From NCBI GenBank assembly GCA_019239975.1, contig JAFAZE010000167.1, forward strand, positions 1 through 64,000: a DNA stretch of 64,000 nt, written 5' to 3'. The notes beneath the pieces were generated by a model, which was not told where the DNA came from, did no database searches, and worked only from the letters and a program-made list of their open reading frames with translations. Within the stretch, counting starts at the first letter, position 1. Each line of letters starts with the position of its first letter. The position numbers were made by a program, and so were the translations under genes. This document shows, piece after piece, positions 7,424 to 17,205 of this stretch. This stretch comes from Streptosporangiaceae bacterium (GTDB lineage: Bacteria; Actinomycetota; Actinomycetes; Streptosporangiales; Streptosporangiaceae).

Positions 7424-10156
7424 TTGGTGATATGGGAGCGCATGGTGATTGCCTGGCGTGGGCTTCGGCGTGGGAGCGACCGCTTCGGCTTGGGGAGCCC
7501 GGCCGGGCGACGTACCCCAGATACGCGGAGAGCCATCGCCCGCCAGTTCGCCGCCGCCCTTCCCGTTGTGCTGGTGCTGACGTTTGGCGGTCAGCAGGGC
7601 GCCCCGTCGGCGGGCGCCCGCTCCCCGTCGCCCTCGACGTCGTCCGGAGTGCGTTCCGCATCATCGCCCACCGCCACGGCACGCGGCGACCGCAGGTTGG
7701 GTTCAAGCTCGCCACGGACCCGCCCGCACACGGTAAAGCCGACGATGTCGCAGGTATCCGCCGGGTCGGTGACGTCGGGAGAGACCGGGTTCTGCCTTGA
7801 TGACGCCAATGATTCGTCGGCGGCGGGTAACAAGATCCAGATCCGGCGCTGTCTCGGGGATGCCTCGCAGGACTGGGCGGTGTGGGATGACGGGACGGTC
7901 CGGGTGGCGGGCGGCTGCCTGGCGGTCTCCGGCGGGGGGGCGAGCAACGGGACGCTGATCGTGCTCGAGCCGTGCACGGCGGGGGATGCGGCCGAGGTGT
8001 GGGCGCCGGGCGCGGCGAGTTCGCTGGTGAACCCGGCGTCGGGCAAGTGCCTGGATGACACCGGTGCGTCGACGGCGAGCGGCACGCAGCCGCAGATCTA
8101 CTCGTGCTCGGGTGCGGTGAACCAGCAGTGGGGACTGCCGGGGACCGCGTCGGGGTTCGTGACCGATGGGGTGACCGGCAAGTGCGCGGATGACAGCGGG
8201 AACTCGGCATCGGCTGGGACGAAGGTGCAGATCTGGTCGTGCAACGGGGGCGCGTCGCAGAAGTGGACGGCGGAATCTGACGGCACGCTGCGGGTGAACG
8301 GGGTGTGCCTGGAGCCGTCGGGCGGCGGGACGGCGGCGAACACGGTGATCGTGCTCGAGCCGTGCAGCGGGGCGGCGGCGCAGGCATGGGCGGCCGGGCC
8401 GGACGGGTGGATGTGGAACGACGACGCCGGGATGTGCCTGTCAGATCCCAACGGATCGGCCGCGAACGGGACGCAGCTGATCATCGCGGGGTGTGCGTCG
8501 AATACCCAGCAGACCTGGCGGCTGCCGCCGGTGCTCGGGCCGGCCGGGGTGCTGACCAGTGGGGTGAGCGGGATGTGCGCGGACGATACGGGTGATTCGG
8601 CGAGCGCGGGCACCAAGGTGCAGGTCTGGTCGTGCACCGGCGGGGCGGCGCAGAAATGGGTGGTGCAGGACGACGGGACGATCCGGGTCAACGGCGTGTG
8701 CCTGGAACCTTCCGGTGGAGCGGCCGCGGCCGGGACCGGGCTGGTCATCGAGCCGTGCAACGGCGCGGCGGCGCAGGACTGGGCGGTCGGCCCGGACGGG
8801 GCGTGGGTGACCAGCACGGCCGCGCAGCTGTGCGTGACCGACCCTGGTAACTCCACCACCAGCGGGACACAGCTGACGATCGCGGCCTGCTCCGGCGCTG
8901 CGGGTCAGACCTGGACGCTGCCGTCCACCACGGTCCCCGCTGCCCCCGAGGAGGTGACGGCGACCGCGGGGAACGGCCAGGCCACTGTGTCGTGGCTGCC
9001 CCCCTGGTCGGATGGCGGTTCCGCGGTAACCGCCTACACGGTGACCTCCTCACCGGTCGGCGCGACCGGCACTGCGGCGGGCACCGCAACCACAGCGACC
9101 GTTACCGGTCTCAGAAACGGAACGTCCTACACCTTCACGGTCACCGCGACCAACACGGTCGGCACGTCCGCGCCGTCGGCGCCGTCCGCTTCGGTTACCC
9201 CTGTGGCCGGCGGCACGCTGTTCGCCCACGACGCCGGGGGACGCGTGACCGCCGTGTTCGACGGGTCGGGGGCTGGATCAAAGATCAGTTACGATCCCGA
9301 CGGCAACATCCTCTCGGTCACGCCGATGCCGGCCTCCACGCTCGCCGTCGCACAGGTCTCTCCGCCCACCGCCGCTCCCGGCGCCACCGTGGCCGTTTAC
9401 GGCACCGATTTCGGCACGAGCGCCTCGGCTGTGGCGGTGACCATAGGCGGCGCGGCCGCGGCAGTCAGCTCCGTCACGCCGAACGAGATCACCGCCACGG
9501 TCCCGTCCGATGCCGGCGGCTCAGGGGTGTCTGTCGCCGTTGGCGGCGTCTCGGCCAGTGGCACGTTCATGGTGCCCGCCGTCCCGCCGACCCCGGCGAT
9601 CACCTCCCTGAGCGAGCAGATAGCAGATCCAGGCGCCACGCTCACCGTGACCGGAACCGGCTTCAGCACGAATCCCGCACTGGATGTGGCGTCCATCGAC
9701 GGGACCAAGGTCGGCGTCACGGCCGCGACGACGACCGCCCTGACGATCGCGCTGCCCACGGTGCCGGTGGCGGGGAACGTCACCGTCACCGCCCCGGGCG
9801 GCACGACCACCTCGAGCGGGCAGATCATCACGGTCCCGCAGCCTTACATGGCGGCCAACGTTGGCTTCGCCGGCGAGCTGGCCAATGCGACGCAGACGAC
9901 GATCACCCTGTCTCAGCCGGACCAGATCGCGCTCGCCCTGTTCAGCGTGCCCGCCGGCAAGCGCGCCTCGGTGGCAGTCAACGCGAACGTCCCCGACTCC
10001 AGCGGCGAGATGAACCAGTACACGATAGACATCTGGGGCCCACAGGGCAGATGGTCACCCAGGCCGAGGCCGGCAGCATCGCCAGCAACCCGAGCACCTT
10101 CTACCTCCCTGACGGCGCCGTGCCCGGACTCTACGAGGCCGAGCTCGTCCCCGTGA
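7424..10156 (+). CDS. RHS polymorphic toxin, segment 1: signal peptide, ricin lectin, FN3 and IPT domains
   Basis: First segment of a broken giant secreted protein. After a basic N-terminus, AAALPVVLVLTFGG is a plausible signal-peptide core followed by a Ser/Thr/Arg-rich linker. Residues about 120-500 contain nine QxW-type motifs (SQDWAVW, NQQWGLP, SQKWTAE, AQAWAAG, QQTWRLP, AQKWVVQ and others) and repeated C-x-DD turns, i.e. about three ricin-B beta-trefoils that should bind carbohydrate. FN3 follows (about 505-595, APEEVTATAGNGQATVSW), then two IPT/TIG folds (about 645-800). The genuine sequence stops at about 10048 after IDIWGPQG; the remaining 36 residues are out-of-frame. Restoring one C there rejoins segment 2 in frame. 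The start may be ATG 7442 or GTG 7445 (GGGAG upstream) rather than TTG 7424. Confidence 0.85.
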   Translation: MVIWERMVIAWRGLRRGSDRFGLGSPAGRRTPDTRRAIARQFAAALPVVLVLTFGGQQGAPSAGARSPSPSTSSGVRSASSPTATARGDRRLGSSSPRTRPHTVKPTMSQVSAGSVTSGETGFCLDDANDSSAAGNKIQIRRCLGDASQDWAVWDDGTVRVAGGCLAVSGGGASNGTLIVLEPCTAGDAAEVWAPGAASSLVNPASGKCLDDTGASTASGTQPQIYSCSGAVNQQWGLPGTASGFVTDGVTGKCADDSGNSASAGTKVQIWSCNGGASQKWTAESDGTLRVNGVCLEPSGGGTAANTVIVLEPCSGAAAQAWAAGPDGWMWNDDAGMCLSDPNGSAANGTQLIIAGCASNTQQTWRLPPVLGPAGVLTSGVSGMCADDTGDSASAGTKVQVWSCTGGAAQKWVVQDDGTIRVNGVCLEPSGGAAAAGTGLVIEPCNGAAAQDWAVGPDGAWVTSTAAQLCVTDPGNSTTSGTQLTIAACSGAAGQTWTLPSTTVPAAPEEVTATAGNGQATVSWLPPWSDGGSAVTAYTVTSSPVGATGTAAGTATTATVTGLRNGTSYTFTVTATNTVGTSAPSAPSASVTPVAGGTLFAHDAGGRVTAVFDGSGAGSKISYDPDGNILSVTPMPASTLAVAQVSPPTAAPGATVAVYGTDFGTSASAVAVTIGGAAAAVSSVTPNEITATVPSDAGGSGVSVAVGGVSASGTFMVPAVPPTPAITSLSEQIADPGATLTVTGTGFSTNPALDVASIDGTKVGVTAATTTALTIALPTVPVAGNVTVTAPGGTTTSSGQIITVPQPYMAANVGFAGELANATQTTITLSQPDQIALALFSVPAGKRASVAVNANVPDSSGEMNQYTIDIWGPQGRWSPRPRPAASPATRAPSTSLTAPCPDSTRPSSSP

Positions 10157-13100
10157 ACGGGGACACCGGTTCGTTCCAGGTCACAGCGACCACGATCACC
10201 GACCCGACAGCATCCCTGACAATCGGTGGCCCCGCGGTCTCCGTGGACGCGCAGGTCCTCGGCGAGCGGCCGACATGGACATTCAGCGGGACCGCGGGAC
10301 AGAAGGTCTACCTACAGTGGTCGCCGAACTGCGCCTGCAACGCGAACCTGATGGCGCCGGACGGGAGCCGTGTCGCCCAGGACAACCGGGGCGGCAACTA
10401 CCTCACCGCGCAGCTGCCTACGTCAGGCGCCTACACGTTCGTGATGGACATAGACGGTTCGATCGTCGGGACGGTCGGCACGTACACCGCGCAGGTGTCG
10501 GTGGTCCCGGCCGATGCCGCCGCGACCACCACGGTGGGCGGGACGGCGTCCCTGACGATCAGCCAGCCCGGTCAGAACGGCAGCGTCAGCTTTTCCGGGA
10601 GCGCGGGCGAGCATGTGTTCATCCGGGCCGATTTCGGCACGCAGCCCGAAGGTGCCGCCGTTGCGGTCCTCGGCCCGGATGGCTCGCTGATCGGCCAGGC
10701 CATGTACGGCGGCGGCTCCGAAGTGGCGGTCGACACCGTCGCCTTGCCCGGCGCCGGCACCTATCAAGTACGGCTTACCATGCTGACCGAGCTCGATAGC
10801 TCCACAGCCGCAACCGTGGGCTATACCGGAACGATCTCGGTCACGGTCACGAACGCGCCTGACGTGACCGCGTCCGCCACCGTGGACGGAGGAGCGGTGT
10901 CGCTGGCGATCGCCCAGTCGGGCGAGCACGGCGTTGTCACCTTTGGCGGCACAGCGGGCGAAAAGGTGTACACCGCCCTGACGATGTCCCCGTCGATGAG
11001 CGAGACCGGCTCCGCTGAGGTCGTGCAGGAGCCAGGCGGGACGGTGCTCGGCTCGAATTCGCTGACCGGCGCCTCGGGTTACATCGATACCGTCACGCTG
11101 CCGGCGGCGGGGACATACGAGCTGATCGCTGATCCGGTCAGCAACACTGGTGCCTACACGGGAACGATCACGGCCGCGGTGACAAGCGCCCCCGACCAGA
11201 CCGCCACCACGAGCGTCGGCGGCACTGCGGCCTCGGTCCCGCTCGGCAAGCCGGGTGAGCGGGCGGTGGTCTCGTTTGCCGGGACCGCGGGGCAAGAAGT
11301 ATTCACTCAGATAAGCGTGACCGGCGCGGCACCAAACTGCAGCAGTGACACCACCCGGCTCATCGATACCGCGACCGGCCTCGCGGTGGCGTTCGGCGGG
11401 AGCCTGAGCACCCCGCCGGACTACATCGACGACACTTCGCTGCCTGCCACCGACACGTATGAGGTCGTGGTCGCCCCATGTGGCGGCTACACCGGCACGG
11501 TGACGGTGACCGTGACGAGCGTTCCGGCCGCCGCCACCGCGACCGGGACCTATGGCGGCGCAGCGGTGACCGTCACGATCACCAAGCCAGGACAGGACGG
11601 CTCGGTGACCTTCACCGGCGTTCCGGCGGGTGCGGCGGTGAAGCTGAACGTCACCGCGTCGACGTTTCCAGCCAGCCCATCTCCGACGGGAAACCTGCTC
11701 GACTCGTCCGGGAATTACATCATCTCCGCCTGCTTTCTCACCGTCGGCACGACGCAGTGCACCGGCACGGCAACGACCGCGGGAACGTACACGCTCCAGG
11801 TCACTCATTCCGGGCCCTACACGGGGTCGGTGACGGTCCAGCTGACAGCCGCGTCGGCGGGCGCGGTCGCGGCGGTCGCGCGTGCGGCGTTCATGCGGCA
11901 GCGCTGGCGTTTCACCAACGGCGAGCCCGCGGTCACCATGGCAACCAGGCGGCAGCCCCCGACGGTCGGCGCCGCGCGTCCGGCCCTCCGGCACGGCGCA
12001 CCACGCTGGGCGTACACCGGGCCCAGCCGCCCGCTGCCGCGCGCGTCGCTGACGGGTACCATCCTCACCACGGCCGGGGCGCCGTTGGCCGGCATCACCG
12101 TCCGGGTCGCGGCCCGAAGCGCACGCACGGACGGCCGCGGGCATTTCACGCTGACCGGCCTGCCGCAGGGCATGCAGATCCTCGAGATGGACGGCCGCAC
12201 CGCGTCGACGCGGCAGCGCTCGTTCGGGGCGTTCGACGTCCAGGTGCGGCTGAGAGCCGGCGTCAACAGACTCCCGTTCACGTCATATTTCCCAGCCCTG
12301 GATACGGCGGACGAGGTGAGCGTGTCCGAGCCGCTGGCCCGGAGCGTGACGCTCACCACCCGGGCGATCCCAGGCCTGAAGGTGAACCTGCCCAAGGGCG
12401 TCCGGATCACCGATGCGGACGGCAAGCCGGTCTACCGGATCGGGATCACGGCTATTCCGGTCAACCGCACCCCGATCCCGATGCCAGTCGGCGAGCAGGT
12501 GCCCGTGTACTTCACCGTCCAGCCGGCCGGCGGCCACATCAGCAACGGCTGGGCCACGATCGACTACCCGAACTACCACAACGCCAAGCCGGGCACCCCG
12601 TTCAGCTTCTGGCACTACGACCTGCATGGCGCCGGGTGGGGCATCTACGGGTCGGGCAGCGTCACCTCCACGGGAACCGAGGTCACGCCCGGTCCTGACA
12701 CATGGGTGACCGATTTCAACGGCGCAATGATCACAACGTCTGGTTATCCGGACCCCAACCAGAGCTGGCTGGAGAAGTTCCTCGCCCTGTCCGCCGACCC
12801 GGTGGATCCCGGTACCGGCCTGTTCCACATGACGCAGACCGACCTGGTGGTCCCCGACGTGATCCCGCTGACCCTGACCCGCGGCTACAACGCGGCCGAC
12901 GGGAACGCCCGGCAGTTCGGCAACAACTCCAGCGATCTCTACGACACGTTCCTCACCCATGACCAGCCGGAGCCGACGCTGTACACCGAGGCGGACCTGA
13001 ACCTGGTCGACGGCGCCCGCATCCACTTCACCCGCATCACCCCCGGCACCTCGTTCAGCACCGCCGTGATGCGCGCAGGGCGCGACCGGCCAGTTCTTCG

Positions 13101-13254
13101 GCGCCACCCTTGCCTGGAACGGATCCGGATGGAACCTCACCCTGCGCGACGGTATGACCCTGATCTACGGGGAGAACGCGCCGCTGCAAGCGATCCGCGA
13201 CGCCCATGGCAACACCGTGCGGATCTACCGGATGTACCAGAACACCTCCGGTAA
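10051..13254 (+). CDS. RHS polymorphic toxin, segment 2: beta-sandwich repeats and RHS N-terminal domain
   Basis: This continues segment 1 after a frameshift near 10048. The first in-frame ATG is at 10051 (MVTQAEAGSIASNPSTFYLP), but translation on its own is doubtful because it has no signal peptide. It holds five or six roughly 110-residue repeats, each with a VGG-xx-SLTI-x-QPG-x-G-x-VSFSG-x-AG core, probably bacterial pre-peptidase-like beta-sandwiches forming a stalk. Next come a carboxypeptidase-regulatory-like domain (LTGTILTTAGAPLAGITVRV) and the RHS leader DPGTGLFHMTQTDL, typical of DUF6531. Meaningful sequence ends near 13060-13080 at ITPGTSFSTAVM. The last 55 or so residues are out-of-frame and the real frame resumes as GQFFGATLAWNGSGWNLTL. 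Confidence 0.82.
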   Translation: MVTQAEAGSIASNPSTFYLPDGAVPGLYEAELVPVNGDTGSFQVTATTITDPTASLTIGGPAVSVDAQVLGERPTWTFSGTAGQKVYLQWSPNCACNANLMAPDGSRVAQDNRGGNYLTAQLPTSGAYTFVMDIDGSIVGTVGTYTAQVSVVPADAAATTTVGGTASLTISQPGQNGSVSFSGSAGEHVFIRADFGTQPEGAAVAVLGPDGSLIGQAMYGGGSEVAVDTVALPGAGTYQVRLTMLTELDSSTAATVGYTGTISVTVTNAPDVTASATVDGGAVSLAIAQSGEHGVVTFGGTAGEKVYTALTMSPSMSETGSAEVVQEPGGTVLGSNSLTGASGYIDTVTLPAAGTYELIADPVSNTGAYTGTITAAVTSAPDQTATTSVGGTAASVPLGKPGERAVVSFAGTAGQEVFTQISVTGAAPNCSSDTTRLIDTATGLAVAFGGSLSTPPDYIDDTSLPATDTYEVVVAPCGGYTGTVTVTVTSVPAAATATGTYGGAAVTVTITKPGQDGSVTFTGVPAGAAVKLNVTASTFPASPSPTGNLLDSSGNYIISACFLTVGTTQCTGTATTAGTYTLQVTHSGPYTGSVTVQLTAASAGAVAAVARAAFMRQRWRFTNGEPAVTMATRRQPPTVGAARPALRHGAPRWAYTGPSRPLPRASLTGTILTTAGAPLAGITVRVAARSARTDGRGHFTLTGLPQGMQILEMDGRTASTRQRSFGAFDVQVRLRAGVNRLPFTSYFPALDTADEVSVSEPLARSVTLTTRAIPGLKVNLPKGVRITDADGKPVYRIGITAIPVNRTPIPMPVGEQVPVYFTVQPAGGHISNGWATIDYPNYHNAKPGTPFSFWHYDLHGAGWGIYGSGSVTSTGTEVTPGPDTWVTDFNGAMITTSGYPDPNQSWLEKFLALSADPVDPGTGLFHMTQTDLVVPDVIPLTLTRGYNAADGNARQFGNNSSDLYDTFLTHDQPEPTLYTEADLNLVDGARIHFTRITPGTSFSTAVMRAGRDRPVLRRHPCLERIRMEPHPARRYDPDLRGERAAASDPRRPWQHRADLPDVPEHLR

Positions 13255-16200
13255 TTACGACGGGCCGATCACCAGCGTCGTGTCCCCCAACGGGTACTGG
13301 CTCGCCTACACCTGGGATACCAGCGTGAACCCGCCTCGGATCACCGAGGTGACCGACAACGCCGGCCAGACAGTGGCATACACCTACGACAGCAGCGGGA
13401 ACCTCAAAACGGTGACCGACCCGGATGGCCGGGTCACCACCTATGGCTACGACGCCAGCAACCGGCTGAACTCGATCACCGATGCCAGAGGCATCCAGTA
13501 CCTCAGCAACGTCTACAACTCCAGCAACCAGGTCAGCAGCCAGGCGATCACCGGGGTCGGCACCTACAGCTACAACTACATGCTGGCGTCCTTGGCCGCG
13601 GCTGCCGCGCCATCGGTAAGCGGCGTTGTAAGCAGGTACTTCTACCCTGTGTCGCGGCCGGCTCCCGCCCAGGCGCAACCGGGTCAGGTGTCAACCGTCC
13701 AGATCACCCAGCCGGATGGCACGACCCGCGATCTGGCATTCGACTCCAACGGCTTCCTGTCGTCCGACACACGGGCGGCTGGCTCCGCGGTGGCGCATTC
13801 GATCAGCGTCGCCATGGACCCGACTCCCGCGACGCAGGACCTCCCGAAGTCGGCCAGCGACGGCGACGGCCGGACGATCAGCACGCTCTACGACAGCAGC
13901 GGCAACGAACTGACCAACACCTACACGTCCGGCGGCTCCTCTATGTCGGCGTCGGCGACCTACAAGGGCACTCCGTTCGGCCTGCCGGACTCGATCACCG
14001 ACGCTGACGGGCAGACCTGGCATTACCAGTACGACGGCAACGGCGACCTGAAATCAGTCACCGACCCGCTCAGCGACAGCGCGACCGCCATATACAACGC
14101 GCAGGGCAACCAGACCCAGATGACCGGCCCGCTCGGGGACGTGACCAGCTACGGTTACACCGACGGGCATCTGACGAGCGTCACCGACGCGATGAACCGG
14201 GTCACCCATTACGTCTACGACCAGGAAGGACGCTTGGTCGAGACCATCAACCCCGATGGCACGATGACATCGACCACTTACGACGCGGACAACCAGGTCC
14301 TGTCCACGACCGGCGCCAACGGGAACACAACGTCGTACAAATACGACCAGAACGGTAACCTCAGCCAGGTCACCGACCCCAAGAGCAACGTCACCAAGTA
14401 CGGCTACAACAACGCCGACCAGCTTTCCTCGGTCACCGACGCGCTCGGCAACACGACGACGTACAACTATTACCCGTCGGGGGAGCTGCAGTATTCCATC
14501 GACGCGAACGGCAACCGGACGGATTACCTCTACGATTCGCTGAACCGGCTCACCACGGTGCAGTACGGTTATACCGGGTCCGGTTCTTATCAGTCACAGC
14601 TCACATACCAGTACGATCCCGCGACCGGGAACGTGGATTCGGTCACCGACACCACACCGGGCGCCGGCTCCGTCAGCTATCAGTACGATCCGTTCGATCA
14701 CATAAAAACCGAGACCGGGCCCGGCGGCACTATCACGTACACCTATAACCCTGCGACCGGGCAGGTCCAGTCGGTCACGCTTCCCGGGCAGGCGGCGATC
14801 AATTATCTCTACGACAACGGCGGTCGGCTGAAGACCGAGACCCAGGGGTCCCAGCAAGCTACGTGGAACTACGATGCCGACGGCAGGGTGACCACGGAGA
14901 CGATGCCGGGCGGCATCACGGCCGACTACACCTACGACGCCGACAGCGAGCTCACCGAGATCGACTACTGGTACGGCTCGACGTTCGTCGGGAACGTCAC
15001 CTACGGATATGACGCGGACGGGAGGCGTATCGCCGAGGGCGGCACGCTGGTGCATAGCCTGCTGCCCGCCGCTCAGTCCGGAAACCAGTACAACACCGAC
15101 AACGAGCTGACCAGCTTCGGCGGGAAGTCATTTACCTACGACAACGACGGCAACCTGCTGTCGGACGGGACCAACTCATACTCCTGGAACGACCGCGGCC
15201 AGCTCGCGTCGGTGACCACGCCATCGGGCACCGACACCTTGGGGTATGACCCGCTGGGGAACCTGATCTCCACTTCCGTGGGCGGGGTGACCACGACCTT
15301 CGCCTACCAGAAGTCCCAGCTGATCTCGCAGTCCAGCAGCAACGGAACAAGCCAGGCCTTCCTCAACGGCCCATATGGCACGCTGGCCAGCACGAACACG
15401 AGCTCTTCGGGCGGGGGAGCGGTGCAGGCCTACCTCCCGGACGCGCTGCAGTCGACGCTGGCATTGGTGAACTCATCCGGCAAGGTGCAGACCTCGTATT
15501 CGTATGACCTCTTCGGCAACGTCACGTCCTCGGCGGACGCTTCGGACCCGAACCCGCTGCGCTACACCGGCCTGATCTCGGGCTCGACTATGCCGCCAGG
15601 CCTGCAGGACAACAACGCCCGCGACTACAGCCCGGTGACGGGCCGGTTTATCTCCCAGGACCCGCTGGGCATGTCCGGCTCCGGGGATAACCTCTACGCC
15701 TACGCCTCCGGCGACCCGGTGGACTACTCCGACCGGTCGGGGATGGAGGAGGAGCAACTCGCCGCCTGTGTCATCGGCGGAAGCTTCAATGACCTCGTCG
15801 GCGTAATCGACGGCCGTAAGAACTCGGTCGGTGACTTCTTCTTCGGCGCCCTCGGCGGCTGCCTGCAGGGCTTGGGTCTCGATGTCGCAGGTCCCGGGGA
15901 GGCCTTGGACAGCCTGGAAGGCGGTGAACTGGCCGCAGAGGGCACCAATGGTGCCGAGGACACGACCGGGCTTGGCGATAACCTCACGGGCGACGGCACC
16001 GGCGGCGACGGCCTGGGCGAAAATGCTTGCACAGCCGCCGAGGCGAACAGTTTCCCCGGCAACACGCTCGTCACCCTTGCGGACGGCAGGACGGCACCCA
16101 TCGACAAACTCAAGCCCGGCGATTACGTCAAAGCAACGGATCCTGCCACCGGCAAGACCGCCGCTGAGCCTGTGCTGGCGATCATCAAAGGCCACAAAGA

Positions 16201-16756
16201 TGAGCACTTTGCGAAGCTTGCCATCACCATCACCATCGGCACCAGGGGCGCACACCGCACCGGGATCGTCATCGCCACCACCGGCCACTCCTTCTACGAC
16301 CAGACCCGCCGCGACTGGGTCGCCGCCGCAAACCTGCGCCCCGGTGATCGGCTCGACGTCCTAGGCGGCACCCCCGCAGCCGTCACCGCCATCCACGTTT
16401 ATAATCAGCCAGAAGCGACCGCGTATAATATCACCGTCGGCACTTATCACGACTACTACGTTATAGCTGCGGACGCTCCTATCCTCGTTCATAACTGTAA
16501 CGAGGGAAACATCAATGTGGGAGGTCGTGAATATGGCATTGAGGAGCTCGCGCAGCTCGTATATCAGCACGTTGGCGCGGGCAATCTTGAAAACCGGCCA
16601 ACATATGATCAAATCCTAGAGGTACTCCAGAGGAGCCGGCCGGAGCGTCTCGAAGGCCAGAATTCGTATCAGTATGTTTACAAGGGAATTAGGGTGATTA
16701 TTAACAACGATGTTCCATGGCGAAGTACCGCCTACCGGATAGGCGGTACTGAATGA
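13154..16756 (+). CDS. RHS polymorphic toxin, segment 3: YD repeats, RHS core, Hint domain and toxin tip
   Basis: C-terminal segment. The frame is open upstream of the ATG at 13154 to about 13076, so the true junction with segment 2 lies before this start. Residues 40-790 are YD/RHS repeats (YDSSGNLKTVTDPDGRVTTY type), which in the family form a shell around the toxin. The core-closing sequence lies near residue 800-860 (NNARDYSPVTGRFISQDPLG), then DNLYAYASGDPVDYSDRSG. From about residue 960 is a Hint module (SFPGNTLVTLADGRTAPI, TTGHSFYD, YNITVGTYHDYYVI, ending ILVHNC), with Ser at the usual Cys1 position. Cleavage after VHN would release a tip of about 85 residues (16499-16753) containing SYQYVYKGIRVIINN and PWRSTAYRIG. 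I do not recognise the tip securely; a small RNase fold is possible. GC drops markedly from about 16390. Confidence 0.9.
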   Translation: MTLIYGENAPLQAIRDAHGNTVRIYRMYQNTSGNYDGPITSVVSPNGYWLAYTWDTSVNPPRITEVTDNAGQTVAYTYDSSGNLKTVTDPDGRVTTYGYDASNRLNSITDARGIQYLSNVYNSSNQVSSQAITGVGTYSYNYMLASLAAAAAPSVSGVVSRYFYPVSRPAPAQAQPGQVSTVQITQPDGTTRDLAFDSNGFLSSDTRAAGSAVAHSISVAMDPTPATQDLPKSASDGDGRTISTLYDSSGNELTNTYTSGGSSMSASATYKGTPFGLPDSITDADGQTWHYQYDGNGDLKSVTDPLSDSATAIYNAQGNQTQMTGPLGDVTSYGYTDGHLTSVTDAMNRVTHYVYDQEGRLVETINPDGTMTSTTYDADNQVLSTTGANGNTTSYKYDQNGNLSQVTDPKSNVTKYGYNNADQLSSVTDALGNTTTYNYYPSGELQYSIDANGNRTDYLYDSLNRLTTVQYGYTGSGSYQSQLTYQYDPATGNVDSVTDTTPGAGSVSYQYDPFDHIKTETGPGGTITYTYNPATGQVQSVTLPGQAAINYLYDNGGRLKTETQGSQQATWNYDADGRVTTETMPGGITADYTYDADSELTEIDYWYGSTFVGNVTYGYDADGRRIAEGGTLVHSLLPAAQSGNQYNTDNELTSFGGKSFTYDNDGNLLSDGTNSYSWNDRGQLASVTTPSGTDTLGYDPLGNLISTSVGGVTTTFAYQKSQLISQSSSNGTSQAFLNGPYGTLASTNTSSSGGGAVQAYLPDALQSTLALVNSSGKVQTSYSYDLFGNVTSSADASDPNPLRYTGLISGSTMPPGLQDNNARDYSPVTGRFISQDPLGMSGSGDNLYAYASGDPVDYSDRSGMEEEQLAACVIGGSFNDLVGVIDGRKNSVGDFFFGALGGCLQGLGLDVAGPGEALDSLEGGELAAEGTNGAEDTTGLGDNLTGDGTGGDGLGENACTAAEANSFPGNTLVTLADGRTAPIDKLKPGDYVKATDPATGKTAAEPVLAIIKGHKDEHFAKLAITITIGTRGAHRTGIVIATTGHSFYDQTRRDWVAAANLRPGDRLDVLGGTPAAVTAIHVYNQPEATAYNITVGTYHDYYVIAADAPILVHNCNEGNINVGGREYGIEELAQLVYQHVGAGNLENRPTYDQILEVLQRSRPERLEGQNSYQYVYKGIRVIINNDVPWRSTAYRIGGTE

Positions 16757-17205
16757 GCAGATGGAGTGAAGCATTCTTGTCTAGGTTTACCCCGGATGAG
16801 GCTTCCCGGCTTCCCCAAGAGATAGTTGCGGCTGCCGCTGGCTGGGCAGGCCATGTAGATAGATTCAAGACAGAGCTTGATATGACCGTTGCATCCGATC
16901 CGGCGAGCTGGGGGTTTCATGATTATATCGCTACTCTATTGATCAGGGATCAGATAGAAAAGCTTCTTTGTCCAGGTGTGCTGCCTGCCCAGCAGAAAAT
17001 AGCAAACTTTATTCAGGAGTACGACAAGGAGCTAATCTCTTTTACGAACGATGACGAGGAAGAACTCTTTATGCAGTTCGTTCGATCCGGTGGTGGTCTG
17101 GGTGCAGATGAATTCATGGCTGATCGGTGGTGGTGGCATCGCGTCCCGCAATCGGGGCCTGTCCTGGAAGAGCTTCTGGACTGGCGTCGACGGATATTTG
17201 GGTAG
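16753..17205 (+). CDS. Candidate immunity protein for the RHS toxin
   Basis: A 150-residue unrecognised cytosolic protein whose ATG overlaps the toxin stop in ATGA, the usual position of an immunity gene. It has no signal peptide or membrane segment. It looks mainly helical and acidic, with the stretch FTNDDEEELFMQF and a Trp-rich end (ADRWWWHRVPQSGPVLEELL). Base composition is far lower in G+C than the surrounding genes and matches the toxin tip, so tip and immunity gene probably arrived together. Function is inferred from position and size only. Confidence 0.7.
   Translation: MSRWSEAFLSRFTPDEASRLPQEIVAAAAGWAGHVDRFKTELDMTVASDPASWGFHDYIATLLIRDQIEKLLCPGVLPAQQKIANFIQEYDKELISFTNDDEEELFMQFVRSGGGLGADEFMADRWWWHRVPQSGPVLEELLDWRRRIFG

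What the first reader, a model, noticed from the sequence alone, without database searches (positions are those of the whole stretch)
16020..17205. RHS toxin tip with Ser-type Hint release module and overlapping immunity gene of unknown families
The RHS core is followed by a Hint module whose first catalytic residue is Ser (SFPGNT) instead of Cys and which ends in VHNC. The 85 residues after it and the 150-residue protein overlapping the toxin stop by ATGA match no family I recognise. The tip contains YKGIRVIINN and PWRSTAY, faintly like small BECR-fold RNases. Both are much lower in G+C than the RHS body, the mark of a swappable toxin/immunity cassette.
Basis: partly seen in the sequence, partly recalled or inferred. 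Interest (0 to 1): 0.82.

Follow-up and report, generated by a model that had tools for sequence, protein, structure and literature searches.

The report
Unnamed RHS toxin and immunity pair
A soil-type actinobacterium carries a swappable toxin tip on a large secreted protein, with its own antidote gene overlapping it; both belong to families without a name in the databases searched, and the toxin is probably a small RNA-cutting enzyme of a well-known type.

Summary
At 16049-16495 there is a Hint release domain (Ser first, TGHS, final HN), then a tip of 85-86 residues ending at 16753. A 150-residue gene overlaps it by ATGA. Neither matches a Pfam, NCBIfam or PADLOC family above cut-off. Counting this one, 19 intact tips were found, all in actinobacteria, and 19 of 19 have a homologue of the partner directly downstream. 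The tip sits on different carriers (RHS+Hint, T7SS-signal without Hint, pilin-like start+Hint), and partner homologues also occur alone, once beside a CdiI_2 gene. This is a real polymorphic toxin/immunity family. The Ser-type Hint is ordinary here: 21 of 22 recognisable Hint starts are Ser. An AlphaFold2 model (pLDDT 82) gives two helices and a beta meander. No fold match is significant, but all 14 size-matched rows among the 50 listed are BECR-fold RNase toxins, and an invariant His in helix 1 and Ser-Thr at the last strand fit that fold. Profile comparison with two BECR families failed, so RNase activity is inferred, not shown. The immunity protein is predicted helical. In this assembly the RHS carrier is split by two frame changes; the cassette is intact. 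New family of a known kind; moderate interest.

The parts
7424..10156 (+). first part of the carrier (same frame as 13154): N-terminus, ricin-B lectin repeats, fn3, IPT/TIG domains
   Evidence: Pfam: Ricin_B_lectin E=1.3e-65, fn3 1e-14, TIG 2.4e-12; third-position G+C
10157..13254 (+). second part of the carrier, in another frame (within ORF 8992-13254): CarboxypepD-like domain (below Pfam's cut-off) and DUF6531 before the RHS repeats
   Evidence: the exact place of the frame change was not determined
13154..16045 (+). RHS/YD repeats and RHS core end
   Evidence: RHS_repeat E=1.7e-76; TIGR03696 E=5.8e-17
16049..16495 (+). Hint (PT-HINT) autoprocessing domain: Ser1, TGHS block, final HN
   Evidence: PF07591 E=4.2e-17; TIGR01443 over its cut-off
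16496..16753 (+). toxin tip expected after cleavage at the Hint Asn (Cys + 85 residues); predicted BECR-like RNase; invariant in 15 of 15: H24, R33, N55, R65, N69, P73, W74, S76, T77, Y79 (P0001 numbering)
16753..17205 (+). immunity gene, 150 aa, predicted helical, ATGA overlap with the toxin stop

Best explanation
A polymorphic toxin/immunity cassette at the end of a secreted, lectin-bearing RHS protein. The RHS protein carries the tip outside. The Hint domain cuts after its last Asn and frees an 86-residue tip. The tip enters a neighbouring bacterium and cleaves RNA, most likely tRNA, with a metal-independent BECR-fold active site (helix-1 His, strand Arg, last-strand Ser/Thr and Tyr). The overlapping gene makes a helical protein that binds and blocks the tip in the producer. 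Shown by sequence: architecture, families, pairing, carrier swapping, purifying selection. Predicted: both folds. Inferred only: export, release, entry, RNase activity, binding.
For: Pairing: 19 of 19 intact tips have the partner family downstream. Tip and partner distances correlate, r=0.76 over 15 pairs and 0.74 over 12, 0 of 20000 permutations as high in either (shared descent adds to this). Tip dN/dS is 0.05-0.14 in the 15 pairs where it could be computed, of 36 printed (9 loci, 21 pairs saturated); partner dN/dS is 0.17-0.28 in 10 of 11 printed pairs (7 loci), 0.61 in one near-identical pair. Carriers: RHS+Hint in L052, L055, L057; T7SS_signal without Hint in L059 (5e-43) and L062 (1e-44); pilin-like start+Hint in L037. 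A lone partner homologue lies beside CdiI_2. BECR: model pLDDT 82. Of the 50 entries listed, all 14 with target_len up to 110 are BECR toxins: colicin E5 Z 3.8 (70 residues, 3.5 A), CdiA-CT NC101 3.5, RelE 3.5, colicin D 3.2, BrnT 3.1, CdiA-CT O32:H37 2.9. Foldseek's first three PDB rows are NC101; second viral row is a DUF4258 phage protein, probability 0.99, E 0.027. PMC3482391 section 28 defines BECR as an N-terminal helical segment plus four-strand meander with S/T in strand 4 in many members; the model and invariant residues are compatible.
Against: No Foldseek match is significant: best PDB E 0.48 with probability 0.23, best viral E 0.017. VIA Z is at most 4.2, that top row is an unrelated peptidase, and beta-propellers score in the same range. 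Profile comparison with ParE and EndoU gave E 0.56 and 0.089, not better than 8 column shuffles. The first strand of the meander is only a two-residue bridge. One BECR relative, CdiA-CT O32:H37, is a non-specific RNase, so tRNA is not certain. The carrier is frame-broken here. No co-fold could be run.
Confidence: 0.6

Rival explanations
1. Polymorphic toxin/immunity cassette whose tip is not an RNase: a small alpha+beta enzyme or binder of another kind, for example a DNase or a nucleotide-modifying enzyme.
For: No significant fold match; sub-threshold Pfam hit PDDEXK_3 E=0.082 in 1 of 15 tips; BECR profile comparison negative for the two families tried.
Against: No conserved D-(D/E)xK set: the invariant polar residues are His, Arg, Asn, Ser, Thr, Tyr and one Glu; the 14 size-matched structural rows are all BECR.
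Confidence: 0.24
2. In this organism the locus is a relic: the RHS carrier is frame-broken, the tip is no longer delivered, and the partner is kept as an orphan immunity gene. This concerns this copy only and is compatible with the best explanation for the family.
For: Third-position G+C switches frame near 10.0-10.25 kb and 13.07-13.25 kb, with stops in each frame outside its part; 7 fetched loci hold the partner without a tip.
Against: Tip and partner frames are intact and keep the invariant residues; the genome is a draft of 176 contigs, so assembly error is possible; tips elsewhere sit at the end of open frames of up to 3256 codons.
Confidence: 0.3
3. The tip is only a structural end of the RHS protein and the downstream gene is unrelated in function.
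For: No activity shown.
Against: 19 of 19 pairing across many genera, related tips on different carriers, lone partner homologues in immunity or toxin neighbourhoods.
Confidence: 0.04

Closest known systems
BECR-fold RNase toxins (colicin E5, colicin D, CdiA-CT NC101, RelE/BrnT; DUF4258 by a weak viral-library match)
   Same: Small C-terminal domain, helical start then beta meander, helix His, strand Arg, Ser/Thr at the last strand; helical immunity protein, as described for NC101 and EC3006 (PMC9086364 passages)
   Different: No sequence similarity detected; own conserved set RP, N, R-x-I-x-N, PW[KR]ST-x-Y; four-strand meander only partly formed in the model; no significant fold score
Polymorphic toxin systems with Hint (PMC3482391)
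   Same: Repeat carrier, Hint just before the tip, adjacent immunity gene, cassette exchange
   Different: Tip and immunity match no Pfam or NCBIfam model above cut-off (window proteins also none in PADLOC)
PT-HINT and bacterial intein-like (BIL) domains
   Same: Ser or Cys first, TxxH, HN end, variable +1 residue
   Different: Nothing unusual; the start reads SFPGNT where most relatives read SFxxGT
CdiI_2 (PF18593) immunity
   Same: Neighbour of one lone homologue of the partner (L040)
   Different: A different family; the partner has no Pfam match above cut-off

Membership tests
Polymorphic toxin system (RHS, Hint-processed) | long repeat carrier with an export signal | tested here: inconclusive
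   RHS, lectin, fn3, TIG found, but split over three frames; a signal peptide was judged by eye only
Polymorphic toxin system (RHS, Hint-processed) | Hint domain directly before the tip | tested here: met
Polymorphic toxin system (RHS, Hint-processed) | exchangeable C-terminal tip on different carriers | tested here: met
Polymorphic toxin system (RHS, Hint-processed) | adjacent gene of a consistent partner family | tested here: met
   19 of 19 intact tips
Polymorphic toxin system (RHS, Hint-processed) | toxicity of the tip and neutralisation by the partner | not testable with these tools
   needs expression and binding assays
BECR-fold RNase | N-terminal helical segment then four-strand meander | tested here: inconclusive
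   model: helices 14-24 and 36-45, bridge 49-50, strands 56-61, 64-69, 77-80; Z at most 3.8 to members
BECR-fold RNase | alcoholic residue (S/T) in the last strand | tested here: met
   S76 and T77 in 15 of 15; last strand 77-80; it is strand 4 only if the bridge 49-50 counts as strand 1
BECR-fold RNase | sequence-profile relation to a known clade | tested here: not met
   ParE and EndoU by hhalign no better than shuffles; no BECR family hit in Pfam for 15 tips; other clades not compared profile to profile
BECR-fold RNase | RNA cleavage | not testable with these tools
   needs an assay
PD-(D/E)XK nuclease (PDDEXK_3) | Pfam score over cut-off and conserved D-(D/E)xK residues | tested here: not met
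   13.7 bits against a cut-off of 22, in 1 of 15 members; no such conserved residues

The most novel reading that the evidence does not exclude
A new actinobacterial clade of BECR RNase toxins with its own active-site set (H24, R33, R65, N69, PW[KR]STxY) and a new all-helical immunity family marked by W-x2-H, W-x2-[HY]-D and WW-x-R-[IV]-P, moved between RHS, type VII and pilin-like carriers.
Probability: 0.55. Interest if true: 0.5.

Novelty: new member of a known kind. Interest (0 to 1): 0.42.

Why it matters
It adds an unnamed toxin family and an unnamed immunity family to the likely antibacterial arsenal of actinobacteria, with a clear pairing and a testable active site. The same small tip on several kinds of carrier makes it a compact case for asking how delivery route and tip are uncoupled. 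It does not change how polymorphic toxins are understood.

Tried and rejected
Family libraries: nothing above cut-off for tip or partner in Pfam (window proteins; 5 tips; 15 tips; 16 partners), NCBIfam (window proteins; 5 tips) or PADLOC (window proteins only). PHROGs was not run. PDB sequence search with tip and partner profiles: tip matches only at E 1.1 or worse, partner none. Viral contigs with the window's tip alone, which finds close relatives only: none. A draw of 396 genomes across the phylum with the tip profile gave only the window's own genome, but no more than 12 first-look candidates per genome were scored in the rows shown, so relatives may be missed. Plasmids: no match for P0002, one for the L053 tip. 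Colicin D in 198 genomes: none; DUF4258 in 100 genomes: 2; so no profile comparison was made with these. Profile comparison with ParE (17 sequences) and EndoU (8) was negative; PT-HINT and the partner alignment as unrelated controls scored E 0.23 and 0.59, and one of 8 shuffles against EndoU scored better than the real tip (E 0.044 against 0.089). Immunity fold: only helical-bundle type matches, Z at most 6.0, not interpreted. Families absent from the VIA list are not excluded. The idea that a Ser-type Hint is unusual was dropped, as was the idea that Cys after VHN matters: in 19 ends read the next residue was S 5, D 4, Q 2, A 2, C 2 and E, T, K, I 1 each. Papers: no text held the motif words; the listings showed no description of this family, but the library lacks most subscription journals and supplements were not searched.
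Full report
The finding checks out at its coordinates. The ORF ending at 16756 holds RHS repeats, an RHS core end, a PT-HINT domain and an 85-residue tail; a 150-residue ORF starts inside the toxin stop codon as ATGA. Read from the sequence, the Hint has Ser at 16049, a TGHS block and a final HN at 16495. Base composition falls inside the Hint, from 0.65 before 16380 to 0.50 after it, and stays at 0.51-0.53 until about 17450, where a NUDIX gene at 0.71 begins. The cassette therefore seems to include the last 40 or so residues of the Hint, a plausible recombination point (inference).

Neither protein matches a named family. Pfam gives only a sub-threshold PDDEXK_3 hit for the tip; NCBIfam and PADLOC give none for the window proteins. 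The 15 aligned tips and 16 aligned partners were also scanned in Pfam: a few families appear at E 0.05-0.26 for one to three members and none is over cut-off by score or repeated widely.

Relatives exist and are paired. A draw of 297 genomes of the same family (own genome included) gave tip matches at E below 1e-10 in the own genome and 4 others (G131, G160, G177, G291), and partner matches at E below 1e-4 in the own genome and 10 others, those 4 among them. Of the 17, 14 have a tip intact to its end and 14 of 14 have the partner family directly downstream; of the 3 broken tips (L060, L061, L063) only L061 has it. A Streptomyces dangxiongensis plasmid adds one pair, whose partner is annotated as hypothetical protein. 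With the window, G131, G160 and G291, 19 of 19 intact tips are paired. In the 15 pairs measured, the gap between toxin stop and the partner start I chose is -4 to +8 bases. A profile search of 396 genomes across the phylum found only the own genome, with the candidate cap noted under Tried and rejected, so the family seems rare.

The tip travels between carriers. L052, L055 and L057 are RHS proteins with Hint; L059 and L062 have a T7SS_signal domain and no Hint; L054 has Hint and a T7SS_signal match below cut-off. G160 (L037) has Hint behind an N-terminus that looks by eye like a Flp-type pilin, with only a weak DUF4244 match. Against the G+C of the fetched locus, the tip is lower in 15 of 15 and the partner in 14 of 15 (L062 is the exception); the difference is small in L049 and L059.

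Seven further loci (L039-L045) hold the partner, by its profile, and no tip in the stretch fetched; in L044 the partner is split over two frames, and L045 is the weakest match. In L040 the gene just upstream matches CdiI_2 over its cut-off; L039 and L041 have other Hint-bearing toxins nearby. This is what orphan immunity genes look like.

Both genes are under purifying selection. The tip has dN/dS 0.05-0.14 in the 15 pairs where synonymous change was not saturated (of 36 printed, 9 loci); the partner has 0.17-0.28 in 10 of 11 printed pairs (7 loci), with 0.61 in one nearly identical pair. The script printed only pairs with pN under 0.25; the window's own tip is too distant for this test. Distances of tips and partners correlate, r 0.76 over 15 and 0.74 over 12 pairs; common descent contributes to this.

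What the tip does. AlphaFold2 with 15 sequences gives pLDDT 82 and pTM 0.72: a short hairpin, helices 14-24 and 36-45, a bridge at 49-50, strands 56-61, 64-69 and 77-80. Foldseek finds nothing significant in the PDB; its first three rows are CdiA-CT NC101 at E 0.48-0.51 and probability 0.23-0.28. In the second look by VIA-align, 110 of 1000 chains had Z 2 or more and 50 entries are listed. The 14 listed with target_len up to 110 are colicin E5 (4), colicin D (3), CdiA-CT NC101 (2), CdiA-CT O32:H37 (1), RelE (3) and BrnT (1). All are BECR-type according to passages of PMC9086364 (NC101, colicins, RelE and BrnT) and the abstract of PMC12585627 (O32:H37, homologous to colicin D). Their Z is 2.6-3.8, rmsd 3.1-4.7 A, identity 7-16 per cent. 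Unrelated larger proteins score in the same range, and the top row of all (Z 4.2) is a peptidase. The review says that BECR CdiA tips typically align at 2.4-3.5 A with 7-17 per cent identity and that most were recognised by structure only. In the viral library no match is significant; the second row is a DUF4258 phage protein, probability 0.99, E 0.027.

The invariant residues fit. PMC3482391 section 28, read in full, defines the BECR unit as an N-terminal helical segment followed by a four-strand meander, with a Ser/Thr in strand 4 shared by many members and an N-terminal His in several colicin E5/D members. In the tip, His24 (end of helix 1), Arg65 and Asn69 (strand 64-69), Ser76 and Thr77 (at the start of the last strand) and Tyr79 are identical in 15 of 15 sequences. 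The last strand is the fourth only if the bridge 49-50 counts. Against this, profile comparison with ParE and EndoU families was no better than with shuffled columns. I conclude that a BECR-like RNase is the likeliest reading, at about 0.6. tRNA is the likeliest target because the review says all but one of the characterised BECR CdiA tips cut tRNA; the O32:H37 tip, reported later as a non-specific RNase, is a counter-example. The immunity model is helical with pLDDT 90 and matches only helical bundles.

The Hint is ordinary. One search listed 63 PT-HINT matches in 16 of 41 genomes; loci were fetched for 30 of them, two from the own genome. My pattern, which can only see Cys, Ser or Thr first, found a Hint start in 22 of the 30: 21 Ser and 1 Cys. 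Two further Thr matches were not Hint starts, and 8 loci, the window's own among them, missed the pattern. The residue after the final HN varied. Passages of PMC7664689 say that Cys1 and Ser1 are both standard and that intein-like domains lacking the +1 nucleophile mostly cleave.

A caution on this copy. Third-position G+C and stop codons show that the carrier 7424-16756 changes frame near 10.0-10.25 kb and again near 13.07-13.25 kb. The genome is a draft of 176 contigs with completeness 92.87. I cannot tell assembly error from decay, and did not join the parts.

Noticed in passing
window 7424-16756: The RHS carrier is split over three reading frames, with switches near 10.0-10.25 kb and 13.07-13.25 kb; assembly error or decay not resolved.
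   Followed up: partly
window 7424-13254: Ricin-B lectins, fn3, IPT/TIG and a sub-threshold CarboxypepD-like domain before the YD repeats recall the adhesion-domain plus TTR layout described for bacterial teneurin-like proteins (PMC13018210, passages); not tested.
   Followed up: no
L037 (G160), L039 3988-5850, L041 942-2798: Hint-bearing toxins whose N-terminus looks by eye like a Flp/Tad-type pilin (G-A-x-x-[VL]-E-Y-A and a hydrophobic stretch); L037 carries this tip family, the other two carry other tips. Pfam gives only weak DUF4244 in two of three. A possible pilin-like route of display.
   Followed up: partly
L059 and L062: The same tip family sits on proteins with a T7SS_signal domain and no Hint, with the partner gene directly downstream.
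   Followed up: yes
L005 944-1354 (upstream of the partner homologue in L040): A lone homologue of the immunity gene lies just after a gene matching CdiI_2 immunity.
   Followed up: yes
L060, L061, L063, L047 from 1625: Broken or duplicated tips of the family: two truncated, one in two frames, and a partial tandem copy next to an unreadable codon in L047.
   Followed up: partly
L090 (G000 contig 18): A second Hint in the own genome, Cys-first (CFPAGT, ending LVHNC), in a 4515-codon open frame; the only Cys-first start among the 22 read.
   Followed up: no
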